Shown piece after piece: positions 33,941-47,517 of a stretch of DNA of 63,094 bases. Source of the DNA: Candidatus Rokuibacteriota bacterium (lineage in GTDB: Bacteria > Methylomirabilota > Methylomirabilia > Rokubacteriales > CSP1-6); assembly GCA_003221615.1 (NCBI GenBank), contig QHSQ01000136.1, forward strand, positions 1 through 63,094. Direction: 5' to 3'. A model generated the notes under the pieces. It was not told where the DNA came from, ran no database searches, and saw only the letters and a program-made list of their open reading frames with translations. Each line of letters begins with the position of its first letter. The first letter of the stretch is position 1. The position numbers and the translations under genes are program-made.

Positions 33941-35563
33941 CTAGGGCACGCCCGCGCTCGCCAGCACCGCCTCGAGCCCGCCGGTGAAATAGAACGCCTT
34001 CGCGGGGACGCTGTCGTGGACGCCGTCGAGGATCTCGCGGCAGACCCGGAGCGACACGGCGAGGCCGACGGTGACGCCGGGGCGCTTCGTGTACGGCTCG
34101 GCCACGTAGAACGGCTGCGCGAAGAAGCGCAGGAGCTTTCCGGCGCGCTCGAGCGTCAGCGCGTCCGCTGCCGGCTCGCCGGCCGCCGGCGGGTCGCCTC
34201 CGGGAGCCAGCAGCGCGGCGAGCGCCTCGCGAATTCTCGCCGCCAGCTCCACGTGCGCGCGGTCGACGTTCTCGGCCTCGAGCAGCCGGGAGCGAGAGGT
34301 GAGGGGATCGACGGTCGGGTAGATGCCCTGCCCGCCGAGCGCGGCCGAGAGCCGGATGACCGCGTCGACACCCGCGAGACCGGCCAGCCGCTCCGGAGTC
34401 CAGGCACCTTCCTCCGAGCGAAAATAGAACGTCTGGACCGGGCCCATCGTGCCCTCGCTGAACCCGTCCTGCCTCAAGGTGTCCGCGATCGACACCGGCG
34501 TCCACGGCGCCAGGGTGAACAGCGACACGCCGGCGGATCCGCCGCTGAGCCGGCGCACCAGCTCTTCCATGACGACCGTCGTGCCCGCGCGAAGCTCGCC
34601 GGCGATGGCCACGGTGCCGCCGCGCACGAGCGGGCACATGACGTCGATCACCTTGATCCCGGTCTCGAGTAGCTCGGCCGGAGCTCCGGATGGCGCCGGC
34701 GGTCCGGTGAGCAGCCGGACGCTTCGGTCGAACAGCTCCTGGCTCACCGGCGTCTGCACCTGACGGCCGGCGCTCATCACCGTCATGCCCGGCTCGAGCG
34801 TGTCGGCGGGTGAGGTGGCCACGCAGCGGACGACGCCGTCGGGCAGCCGCTGCACGACCTGCAGGGTCACCGCGCGCTGCCGCGCGTCGTCGCTCACGAC
34901 GATCTCCGTGAGGAAGTCGGGCAGGGAGAGCGGGTCGAAGCGGGCCTCGACAAGGCCCTCGCGCGCTCGGACGATGCGTCCGATGCGGGCCGCGAAATCA
35001 TCGGGCAGCTGATGCGTCTCGAGCGTGTCCTTCACCATGGTCAAGATCCTCCGCTTGAGCTGCGCGCGCGCCGCGTGCAGCCGGTTGTTCACGGTCGTGA
35101 CCGGCACCCCCAGGAACGTCGCGATGTCCTGGTGGGAGCAGTCGTGCACGTAGTAGAGCGTGACGACTTCGCGGAGGGGTCTCGCCAGGTCGCCGATCGC
35201 GGCCAGCACGGCACGCGCTTGCTGGCGCCGCTCGACCCGGCGGTCCGGCGCCGGCTCGTCGGCGGCCACGGTGTCGGCCGAGCTCAGCGGCAACGCTTCG
35301 AGATGCTTGCGTCGCAGCACCCGGTGAGCTCGGTGCCTCACGATCCCACGGAGCCAGCCGGCGAACGCGGCCGGGTCGGTCAGGCTCGGCAGGGCGTACC
35401 AGGCCGCGACGAACGCTTCCTGGACGACGTCTTCGGCCTGGCCGAGGTCGCGAACGAACGAGAGCGCGTAGCCGAAGGCCATGTGCTGGAAGCGGCTGAT
35501 GATCTCGGCGAAGGCGTCGAGATCGCCTCCGGCTGCGGCCCGAACCGTTCGTTCCAGGTCCAT
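33941..35563 (-). CDS. ECF sigma factor fused to a degenerate F1-ATPase beta-subunit domain
   Basis: A 540-aa fusion. Residues about 10-85 are sigma region 2 (LGQAEDVVQEAFVAAWYALP, then FAGWLRGIVRHRAHRVLRRK) and about 115-172 are region 4 (LREVVTLYYVHDCSHQDIAT, VPVTTVNNRLHAARAQLKRR). After a linker, residues about 230-534 follow F1-ATPase beta in order. They comprise an N-terminal barrel (LQVVQRLPDGVVRCVATSPA), LLETGIKVIDVMCPLVRGG (298-316), GGQGIYPTVDPLTSRSRLL (410-428) and a C-terminal domain (FAQPFYVAEPYTKRPGVTVG 481-500; VPAKAFYFTGGLEAVL 519-534). The P-loop expected as GGAGVGKT is ELRAGTTV (323-330), with no Lys. The GERTREG and DELSEED regions are absent. So ATP hydrolysis is unlikely; ligand sensing or protein interaction is inferred. 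A repeat separates it from the upstream peroxiredoxin gene. No anti-sigma gene is adjacent. Confidence 0.92.
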   Translation of the reverse strand: MDLERTVRAAAGGDLDAFAEIISRFQHMAFGYALSFVRDLGQAEDVVQEAFVAAWYALPSLTDPAAFAGWLRGIVRHRAHRVLRRKHLEALPLSSADTVAADEPAPDRRVERRQQARAVLAAIGDLARPLREVVTLYYVHDCSHQDIATFLGVPVTTVNNRLHAARAQLKRRILTMVKDTLETHQLPDDFAARIGRIVRAREGLVEARFDPLSLPDFLTEIVVSDDARQRAVTLQVVQRLPDGVVRCVATSPADTLEPGMTVMSAGRQVQTPVSQELFDRSVRLLTGPPAPSGAPAELLETGIKVIDVMCPLVRGGTVAIAGELRAGTTVVMEELVRRLSGGSAGVSLFTLAPWTPVSIADTLRQDGFSEGTMGPVQTFYFRSEEGAWTPERLAGLAGVDAVIRLSAALGGQGIYPTVDPLTSRSRLLEAENVDRAHVELAARIREALAALLAPGGDPPAAGEPAADALTLERAGKLLRFFAQPFYVAEPYTKRPGVTVGLAVSLRVCREILDGVHDSVPAKAFYFTGGLEAVLASAGVP

Positions 35564-35636
35564 CGCCCCTCCTCACCAGTAGGTGCCAGGATCGGCCCGT
35601 CGGCTTTACAGCGGCGATGCCCCGCGAACGGTGTTT

Positions 35637-36192: not shown

Positions 36193-37131
36193 TCAACGCG
36201 CGCGCACGATCTCGGCCGCGAACGCCTCGAGCGCGTCCCAATCGTACGGCCCCTCGCGCAGCGCGATGCTGAGCCGGGTGCAGCCGAGCGCTCGGAACTG
36301 GTCGACCATCTCGCGCGCGTCCTTCACGGAGCCTTTGAGATAGCCGGTGCGCTCGGCGCGCGCGGGGCTGCCGCCGAAATGGCTGCGCCACAGCTCGTCA
36401 GCGCGGGCGATGCCCTTCGCGTCGGCCCCGAGGTAGAAGCCGAGGTTGACGGCGCGCATGATCGTCTTGGGATCGCGCCCTTCGGTCTCGCACCAGCGGT
36501 CGAGCACCTGGCCCTTGTGCTTCCAGTCGTCCGGGCCGATGTAGGCGCCGTTCCAGCCGTCGGCGTACTTCGCCGCCGCGCGGAGCGTGCGCTTCTCGCC
36601 GCGCCCGCCGATCCAGATCGGAATGCGGGGCTGGAGCGGCTTGGGATAGTTGGGGGCATTGGACACCTGGAAGTGCTTGCCCTGGAAATTGGCGCGCTTC
36701 TGCTCGGGGTCGAGGAGCAATCTCAGGATCTGCGCGTACTCTTCCAGCATGTCCTCGCGCGGCCCGATCGATGGGAACGCGTAGCCGAAGGCCTTGGCCT
36801 CGATGTCGTGCCAGCCGGCGCCGAGCCCGCAATCGACGCGCCCGTTCGACAGGTGGTCAATCGTGGTGAGCGATTTGGCCAGGAGCCCGGGGTTACGGTA
36901 CGCGACGCAGTAGACGCCGCTGCCGAGGCGGACGTGCGTCGTGTCCATCGCGGCCGCCGTCAAGGTCGCGATCGCCTCGTAGCAGTCCATGTCGCCGCCG
37001 CGTGGCGGCGACTCTTGGAAATGATCGGAGACGGAGAACCAGTCGAACCCTTTCGCGTCGGCGAACTTCCACAGCTTGCGCATCTCGGCGAGCGGCCCGC
37101 CCATGGCGCCGATATGGATCCCGAATTTCAT
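36193..37131 (-). CDS. LLM class F420-dependent oxidoreductase
   Basis: A 312-aa luciferase-like TIM-barrel oxidoreductase, probably using F420 (or FMN). It starts MKFGIHIGAMGGPLAEMRKL and shows DWFSVSDHFQESPPRGGD, then LGSGVYCVAYRNPGLLAKSL, LSNGRVDCGLGAGWHDIEAK, and PRIPIWIGGRGEKRTLRAAA. The family oxidises or reduces varied secondary alcohols and imines, so the substrate is unassigned. The ATG lies one nucleotide after the stop of the TIM-barrel isomerase gene, indicating tight co-transcription on the minus strand downstream of the Fbp-type ABC operon. Confidence 0.93.
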   Translation of the reverse strand: MKFGIHIGAMGGPLAEMRKLWKFADAKGFDWFSVSDHFQESPPRGGDMDCYEAIATLTAAAMDTTHVRLGSGVYCVAYRNPGLLAKSLTTIDHLSNGRVDCGLGAGWHDIEAKAFGYAFPSIGPREDMLEEYAQILRLLLDPEQKRANFQGKHFQVSNAPNYPKPLQPRIPIWIGGRGEKRTLRAAAKYADGWNGAYIGPDDWKHKGQVLDRWCETEGRDPKTIMRAVNLGFYLGADAKGIARADELWRSHFGGSPARAERTGYLKGSVKDAREMVDQFRALGCTRLSIALREGPYDWDALEAFAAEIVRAR

Positions 37132-46848: not shown

Positions 46849-47517
46849 ATGGATTTGGACCCCTTCGTGACGCTCGCCGCGGCCGCGGCGGCGACGACGC
46901 GGCTGCGGGTCGGCACGGGCGTATGCCTGGTCGTGCAGCGCGATCCGATCCAGACCGCCAAGCTGGTCGCCAGCCTCGACCAGGTCTCGAGCGGGCGCTT
47001 CCTCTTCGGCATCGGAGCGGGCTGGAACGCCGAGGAGATGCTCGATCACGGCACCGATTTCAAGGCGCGCTTCACGGTGATGCGCGAGCGCGTCGAGGCG
47101 ATGCGGGCGATCTGGACGAAGTCGAAGCCCGAGTACAGCGGCGAGTTCGTCAAATTCCCGCCGATGATGACCTGGCCCAAGCCGGTGCAGAAGCCTCATC
47201 CGCCGGTGATCGTGGGCGGCGCCTTTCCGTACGGCGCGCGGCGGGCGATCGCGTACGGCGACGGATGGATGCCACACGCGCGCCGGCCGGAGTACGGCGA
47301 CGTGATCAAGCTCCTGCCGGATTTCCAGAAGCTCGTCGCCGAGTCGGGGCGCGATCCAGCGACCCTGCCGATCACGGTGTTCGGCGTGCCGGAAGACAAG
47401 GATCTCATCAAGCGCTATGGCGACGCCGGTGTCGCGCGACTGGTCTTCAACCTGAATCCGGCGAAGGCCGATGAGGTGCTGCCGGCGCTCGATCGTTTCG
47501 CCGGGTTGATGCGCTAG
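46849..47517 (+). CDS. LLM class oxidoreductase, N-terminally truncated
   Basis: A 222-aa luciferase-like protein that starts inside the family domain: MDLDPFVTLAAAAAATTRLR corresponds to about residue 65-70 of normal ~290-aa members. It continues normally (GTGVCLVVQRDPIQTAKLVA, GRFLFGIGAGWNAEEMLDHG, HPPVIVGGAFPYGARRAIAY). The first beta strand and part of the cofactor pocket are missing, and no remnant is visible upstream, where two hairpins lie. A good ribosome site (TAGGAGGCAGCGGTC) precedes the ATG, so the short form may still be translated. It is followed by the AtuA gene after 5 nt. Confidence 0.85.
   Translation: MDLDPFVTLAAAAAATTRLRVGTGVCLVVQRDPIQTAKLVASLDQVSSGRFLFGIGAGWNAEEMLDHGTDFKARFTVMRERVEAMRAIWTKSKPEYSGEFVKFPPMMTWPKPVQKPHPPVIVGGAFPYGARRAIAYGDGWMPHARRPEYGDVIKLLPDFQKLVAESGRDPATLPITVFGVPEDKDLIKRYGDAGVARLVFNLNPAKADEVLPALDRFAGLMR

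What the first reader, a model, noticed from the sequence alone, without database searches (positions are those of the whole stretch)
33941..35563. ECF sigma factor fused to a dead F1-ATPase beta-like domain
The 540-aa protein has complete sigma regions 2 and 4 followed by blocks collinear with F1-ATPase beta: LLETGIKVIDVMCPLVRGG, GGQGIYPTVDPLTSRSRLL, FAQPFYVAEPYTKRPGVTVG and VPAKAFYFTGGLEAVL. The same order is known in the rotary enzyme (ETGIKVIDLMCPFAKGG, LGIYPAVDPLDSTSR, SQPFFVAEVFTGSPG, LPEQAFYMVGSIEEA). The P-loop Lys, the GERTREG glutamate region and DELSEED are gone. I know of no described sigma factor carrying a rotary ATPase subunit fold. It could sense nucleotide, or alpha subunits or free F1 assembly state, and tie transcription to cellular energy. 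Homology is seen directly; function is inference.
Basis: partly seen in the sequence, partly recalled or inferred. Interest (0 to 1): 0.95.

Follow-up and report, generated by a model that had tools for sequence, protein, structure and literature searches.

The report
Sigma factor fused to ATP-synthase relic
Some soil bacteria carry a gene-switching protein (a sigma factor) whose tail is a cut-down copy of the catalytic beta subunit of ATP synthase that has lost its key catalytic residues but keeps the residues of its adenine pocket, and it is predicted to sense an adenine-containing molecule in the cell and so control when genes, including its own, are switched on.

Summary

The Walker lysine is absent in 312 of 312 relatives, the roughly 90 residues holding the catalytic Glu/Arg and Walker B are missing, and the gamma-contact loops are eroded. 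The adenine pocket is nearly invariant.

This is a predicted self-recognised promoter; no wider regulon was found.

Best reading: a self-gated sigma factor in which a dead F1-beta fold serves as a fused sensor for an adenine-containing ligand, in a positive feedback loop. Sensing and gating are inferred. My nine text searches found no such sigma factor described.

The parts
33941..35563 (-). ECF sigma / pseudo-F1-beta fusion gene, 540 aa, ATG start, stop at 33941-33943
   Evidence: ORF; profiles; relatives
35603..35607 (-). AAAGC, predicted -35 element of the conserved upstream promoter-like site
   Evidence: AAAG[CG]-N15-GG[CT]AC[CT] upstream of 14 of 14 family genes with upstream DNA
35582..35587 (-). 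GGCACC, predicted -10 element, 18 nt before the ATG
35306..35500 (-). sigma region 2 (residues 22-86)
   Evidence: PF04542 49.5 bits
35057..35215 (-). sigma region 4 (residues 117-169)
   Evidence: PF08281 51.7 bits
34709..34981 (-). F1-beta N-terminal beta-barrel homologue (residues 195-285)
   Evidence: alignments; PF02874 below cut-off; strands in the model
34448..34672 (-). remnant of the F1-beta nucleotide-binding domain (residues 298-372)
   Evidence: PF00006
34577..34600 (-). former P-loop GELRAGTT (residues 322-329); Walker Lys replaced by Thr at residue 328, first and last glycine kept
   Evidence: Lys in 0 of 312
34457..34516 (-). short loop (residues 350-369) standing where canonical beta has the catalytic Glu/Arg, Walker B Asp and Arg260 (about 90 residues missing)
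   Evidence: 19-29 residues between F349 and S369 in 311 members against 110 in own beta
33944..34447 (-). last core strands and C-terminal helical domain of F1-beta (residues 373-540)
   Evidence: atpD 370-537
34319..34321 (-). Tyr415, counterpart of beta Tyr345 (one face of the adenine pocket)
   Evidence: Y 280 + W 30 of 312; role of this Tyr in F1: PMC6597759 and PMC5608556 passages
34109..34111 (-). Phe485, counterpart of beta Phe418 (lines the adenine pocket)
   Evidence: F 298 of 304; PMC5608556 passages
34091..34093 (-). Tyr491, counterpart of beta Phe424 (opposite face of the adenine pocket)
   Evidence: Y 227 + W 62 + F 7 of 303; PMC6597759 and PMC5608556 passages

Best explanation
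This gene encodes an ECF sigma factor joined to a catalytically stripped F1-ATPase beta fold, which likely acts as a built-in sensor for an adenine-containing ligand that would open or close the sigma factor's access to RNA polymerase. Shown here: the fusion, its wide conservation, loss of the Walker lysine and of the segment with the catalytic Glu/Arg and Walker B, near-invariance of the adenine pocket, and a conserved bipartite element upstream of the gene. Inferred: ligand binding (an adenine nucleotide, nucleoside or other adenine-bearing molecule; the acidic residue in the old P-loop of most members speaks against tight ATP phosphate binding). Inferred: movement of the C-terminal domain on binding, as canonical beta opens and closes, would free or mask sigma 2/4 in cis, replacing an anti-sigma factor. 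Inferred: the released sigma factor would recognise AAAGS-N15-GGYACY before its own gene, giving a positive feedback loop gated by the ligand. Targets beyond itself were not found.
Against: No binding or activity data exist. The pocket residues also pack the fold, so their retention may be structural; the permutation treats columns as independent, and the pocket columns were chosen by me knowing the alignment. An acidic residue follows the first glycine of the former P-loop in 258 of 312 (E 238, D 20), which is unfavourable for ATP. Several copies are broken (L076, L080, L081), so the gene is dispensable in some genomes. The model says nothing about sigma-beta docking, and over barrel plus core its rmsd to F1-beta is 11 A, so the barrel placement is unknown. 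The promoter motif differs from the usual ECF AAC/CGT signature described in PMC3426412. It is not enriched genome-wide: 82 sites against 255 for the reversed control in 12 genomes, so no regulon beyond self was found.
Confidence: 0.45

Rival explanations
1. The beta-derived domain is a protein-docking module that binds F1 alpha, free F1 parts or another protein, so that the sigma factor would report on ATP synthase assembly.
For: The predicted fold is kept, and canonical beta normally works inside a ring of alpha and beta. The genome encodes separate canonical alpha and beta (L001 and L002), so partners exist.
Against: The gamma catch-loop segment is eroded (beta residue kept in at most 0.44 of members at the six beta-invariant aligned positions P313-D319), and the DELSEED stretch is shortened. 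What is kept best is the ligand pocket. Alpha-facing residues were not tested.
Confidence: 0.2
2. The domain is a ligand-free lid or scaffold: an inert, degraded beta fold that only stabilises or inhibits the sigma domains, with regulation coming from transcription or proteolysis.
For: The Walker Lys and the catalytic segment are lost in all aligned members; pocket aromatics could be kept for packing. Three copies have broken frames (L076, L080, L081), so the gene is dispensable in some genomes.
Against: Pocket columns are kept more than other beta-invariant columns, and the domain is under purifying selection in the pairs tested.
Confidence: 0.3
3. The fusion is an assembly or binning artefact joining a sigma gene to an atpD fragment.
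For: The window's genome is a draft with 596 contigs and 8.55% contamination.
Against: 279 of 303 listed clusters carry both halves; two phyla hold it; the domain differs from the genome's own beta by a deletion and substitutions shared by the family.
Confidence: 0.01

Closest known systems
ECF41 sigma factors (fused SnoaL-like C-terminal domain; passages of PMC3426412 and passages and tables of PMC8999054)
   Same: ECF sigma 2 + sigma 4 followed by a large C-terminal extension; a highly conserved promoter motif with a single detectable target.
   Different: The extension is SnoaL-like, not F1-beta; the target promoters tested in the passages I read are PydfG and PRSP_0606, and the usual ECF promoter signature given there (AAC, CGT) differs from the element here.
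ECF42 and other ECF groups with C-terminal extensions (PMC8999054 Table 2)
   Same: Extension thought to regulate the sigma factor in cis or through a partner.
   Different: ECF42 extensions are TPR-rich. 'ATP synthase' does not occur in the text of that review.
F1-ATPase beta subunit (AtpD)
   Same: Barrel, nucleotide-binding core, C-terminal helical domain, adenine pocket; sister clade in the tree.
   Different: No Walker Lys, no catalytic Glu/Arg, no Walker B, no DELSEED, eroded catch loop; fused behind a sigma factor; scores 158.9 against a 462.85-bit cut-off.
G1-ATPase beta of the Mycoplasma mobile gliding machinery (PMC11864180, passages; 9io5)
   Same: An F1-beta copy taken over for a job other than ATP synthesis, in a longer chain (784 aa).
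   Different: It keeps the GGAGVGKT P-loop and a DELSEED-like loop (DALSEDD) and works in motility, not in transcription.

Membership tests
ECF (group 4) sigma-70 factors | sigma region 2 and region 4 present, no region 1.2 or 3 | tested here: met
   PF04542 and PF08281 above cut-off; no region 1.2 or 3 family among the nine listed at E<=1
ECF (group 4) sigma-70 factors | directs RNA polymerase to a bipartite promoter | not testable with these tools
   only a conserved upstream element was found; no binding or transcription data
F1-ATPase beta subunits | whole-protein score over the atpD equivalog cut-off | tested here: not met
   158.9 against 462.85 bits
F1-ATPase beta subunits | Walker A Lys | tested here: not met
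   Lys in 0 of 312
F1-ATPase beta subunits | catalytic Glu/Arg (GERTREG) and Walker B Asp | tested here: not met
   segment of 19-29 residues instead of 110
F1-ATPase beta subunits | DELSEED loop and gamma catch loop | tested here: not met
F1-ATPase beta subunits | beta fold | tested here: met
F1-ATPase beta subunits | groups with beta rather than alpha or other family members | tested here: met
   support 100; 53 fused, 8 beta, 3 alpha, 2 other, 2 Rho-like sequences
ECF41 sigma factors | SnoaL-like C-terminal domain | tested here: not met
   no SnoaL family among the nine listed at E<=1; the extension matches F1-beta
ECF sigma factors with a fused regulatory extension | the extension controls sigma activity | not tested
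   needs truncation experiments

The most novel reading that the evidence does not exclude
A dead F1-ATPase beta subunit has become a one-piece energy or adenylate sensor for transcription: the retained adenine pocket binds an adenine-bearing signal, the old open/close movement of beta gates the attached sigma factor, and the sigma factor drives its own promoter, making a ligand-gated switch built from a rotary motor part.
Probability: 0.4. Interest if true: 0.93.

Novelty: new variant of a known kind. Interest (0 to 1): 0.86.

Why it matters
ECF sigma factors with fused regulatory extensions are known, but none of those I could find (and the nine text searches) uses a rotary ATPase subunit. 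If the pocket binds an adenine ligand, this would be a direct link in one polypeptide from adenylate status to promoter choice. It would also show how the F1-beta open/close movement can be reused once catalysis is lost. The conserved upstream element makes it testable at once with a reporter.

Tried and rejected
Assembly artefact: rejected.

Conserved gene neighbourhood: ORFs within 6 kb in 13 loci were compared all-against-all. Apart from syntenic pairs, what recurs is luciferase-like (PF00296) genes, ABC-type ATPases, and one ORF pair 90% identical in L077 and L081 (4.3 kb away in one, next to the gene in the other), which I did not follow. The genome has 135 PF00296 matches in 7.24 Mb, so finding one in about 4 of 9 lineages is not surprising (my estimate, roughly p 0.1). 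No anti-sigma gene was recognised by reading the starts of neighbouring ORFs of 150 aa or more; shorter ORFs were not looked at and no profile search of neighbours was run.

Wider regulon: with a 14-17 nt spacer, 15 sites against 55 for the reversed-pattern control in the own genome; with the exact 15-nt spacer, 82 against 255 in 12 genomes; a relaxed motif with an ATG downstream gave 65 against 88 in 11 genomes. Reading the ORFs downstream of the exact sites gave the family's own genes, one 68-aa ORF in L074 and no convincing other set. The site was not found, up to one mismatch, in the 10,473 bases read around the alpha-subunit gene (L199).

Plasmids: 428 records match part of the protein and none covers 80% of it. 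All 15 listed rows cover mainly the beta part; 5 are annotated atpD and 10 carry no annotation.

Sigma paralogues in the own genome: the best by score has 32% identity over the sigma part, so the origin of the sigma half was not resolved; no sister ECF group was sought.

Literature: nine text searches (listings seen) showed no description of a sigma factor carrying an F1 subunit. The primary ECF re-classification paper (10.1093/nar/gkaa1229) is not held, so its group list was seen only through the tables of PMC8999054.

Full report
The observation. The ORF at 33941-35563 (minus) is 540 aa and has sigma-70 regions 2 and 4 (residues 22-86 and 117-169) followed by an F1-ATPase beta-derived part. 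The beta part scores E=1.8e-46 against the atpD model and E=6.5e-41 against PDB F1 beta chains. Three collinear stretches align: the N-terminal barrel (about 195-297), the P-loop region (about 290-350) and the last core strands with the C-terminal helical domain (369-537).

Family. A search with the window protein gave 1074 proteins at E<=1e-3, one with an Alphaproteobacterial member 930, one with a divergent Rokubacterial member 738; 120 were listed each time. Together 303 distinct clusters were listed. 279 of them span sigma 2, sigma 4, the P-loop segment, the following strands and the C-terminal domain; 24 lack or only partly cover one of these. The unlisted hits were not examined and may include ordinary sigma factors or beta subunits. 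Named sources are Candidatus Rokuibacteriota, Methylomirabilota, Reyranella, a Rhodospirillales record (URHD0017), Bradyrhizobium, Xanthobacteraceae and Vineibacter. In whole genomes the gene is patchy: 10 of 95 in the window's phylum, 6 of 33 genera, where the matches in G058 (L076), G051 (L080) and G091 (L081) have broken frames and that in G044 is cut by a contig end; 3 of 76 in the order of the URHD0017 genome, one of them only a sigma half at a contig end; 1 of 397 in the order of the Bradyrhizobium MAG, where only three candidates per genome were scored. No plasmid record covers 80% of it.

What was lost. In an alignment of 313 members, Lys at the Walker position occurs in 0 of 312; Thr is the most frequent residue, 219. 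The two P-loop glycines stay (304 and 310 of 312) and the Mg-binding Thr position is Thr in 173 of 312. A divergent clade still has GGERVGTT, close to canonical GGAGVGKT, also without the Lys. Between F349 and S369, 311 members have 19-29 residues where the genome's own beta has 110. That stretch of canonical beta carries the catalytic Glu and Arg, the Walker B strand and Arg260 (roles recalled, partly seen in PMC5608556 passages). The stretch where DELSEED would be is 9-24 against 27 residues, and the catch-loop positions are mostly changed.

What was kept. Counterparts of the adenine pocket are nearly invariant: Tyr345 = Y415 (Y 280, W 30 of 312), Pro346 = P416 (310 of 312), Phe418 = F485 (298 of 304), Ala421 = A488 (296 of 304), Phe424 = Y491 (Y 227, W 62, F 7 of 303), Thr425 = T492 (289 of 303), and the Val after the P-loop = V330 (309 of 312). 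Tyr345 and Phe424 sandwich a ligand, and Phe418, Pro346 and that Val line the pocket, in a docking study on F1 (PMC5608556); the Tyr and Phe pair forms the adenine pocket in solved F1 structures (PMC6597759); passages read. Ala421 and Thr425 as pocket residues are recalled. Across residues 373-540 four pocket columns (415, 485, 488, 492) keep the beta residue in 97% on average, against 32% for all aligned columns and 39% for the 67 columns invariant in the 8 beta references (p 0.0005 and 0.002). Column 491 was left out there because Phe has become Tyr or Trp; counted as a loss, the five columns average 77% against 34%, p 0.007. The columns were chosen knowing the alignment, so these p values are optimistic. 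Against ATP as ligand, the residue after the first P-loop glycine is acidic in 258 of 312.

The upstream element. Comparing 250 nt upstream of 10 family genes showed a shared element. Written as AAAG[CG]-N15-GG[CT]AC[CT], it is present before 12 of 12 distinct family genes with upstream DNA in 580,694 strand-bases of loci, with one other site (before a 68-aa ORF in L074) once two loci held twice are counted once; L082 starts inside its gene and could not be tested. Two further genes, in G097 contig C797 and G127 contig C89, also have it; they are seen only as sigma halves at contig ends, and the G097 beta half from residue 142 on lies on another contig (L011). That makes 14 of 14. Four (L076, L080, C797, C89) were not among the 10 used to define it; C797 was found through the motif itself, so the unbiased held-out count is 3 of 3. 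The element ends 18-25 nt before the start codon in 12 of 14 and 45 nt before it in L077 and L081. The own genome has three other exact sites in about 14.5 million strand-positions, so chance cannot explain this. I read it as the promoter recognised by the sigma factor itself, which is inferred. An inverted repeat of the type CACY-N4/5-RGTG follows in several members and is unexplained. Genome-wide there is no excess over the reversed-pattern control, so only the gene itself is a supported target.

Context. Neighbours mostly differ between lineages. In the window the gene lies 46 nt before a hydantoinase-A-like gene on the same strand (name from reading the sequence), a neighbour otherwise seen only in the syntenic L080. 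This argues for regulation in cis by the fused domain.

Mechanism and comparison. ECF41 factors show that a fused C-terminal domain can regulate an ECF sigma factor and that such a factor can have a single promoter target (PMC3426412, passages). PMC8999054 lists ECF groups with extensions, none described with an ATP synthase domain in its text. I therefore file this as a new variant of ECF sigma factors with fused regulators, not as an F1 beta subunit, whose defining features are not met. That it senses an adenine-bearing ligand is the most likely reading but untested; a ligand-free lid or a docking module for F1 parts remain open.

Noticed in passing
L080:9883-10692 (G051 contig C131; same locus as L010): A close relative keeps the promoter-like element and the first sigma codons, but most of the sigma half is missing and the frame is broken, leaving only a beta-domain remnant; an amidohydrolase/ABC-type cluster lies upstream.
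   Followed up: partly
L081:8313-10499 (G091 contig C65): The match stops at query residue 425 and the frame continues into unrelated sequence, so this copy looks frameshifted or misassembled.
   Followed up: no
L076:5983-7642 (G058 contig C46): The ORF from the ATG after the promoter-like site stops at 107 aa, while the main match (query 58-537) lies in another frame, so this copy is frameshifted or has a sequencing error.
   Followed up: partly
L074:8031-8056 (= L007:7092): A second exact promoter-like site, 18 nt before the ATG of a 68-aa ORF with a signal-peptide-like start, 864 bp before the fusion gene's own site.
   Followed up: partly
G052, contigs C157 and C39 (L074, L079): One genome carries two fusion genes from two divergent clades.
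   Followed up: no
window 35574-35585 and counterparts in L075, L078, L079: An inverted repeat CACY-N4/5-RGTG overlaps the predicted -10 element and start region in several members.
   Followed up: no
whole genome G000: 135 luciferase-like (PF00296) matches in 7.24 Mb; two lie in the window (36409-37113 and 46855-47382).
   Followed up: no
L012:3701-3976: A contig binned as Chloroflexi has a fragment 82% identical within residues 416-512; real transfer or mis-binning.
   Followed up: no
L077 and L081, upstream of the fusion gene: An ORF pair 90% identical lies 4.3 kb upstream in L077 and next to the gene in L081, both on the opposite strand.
   Followed up: no
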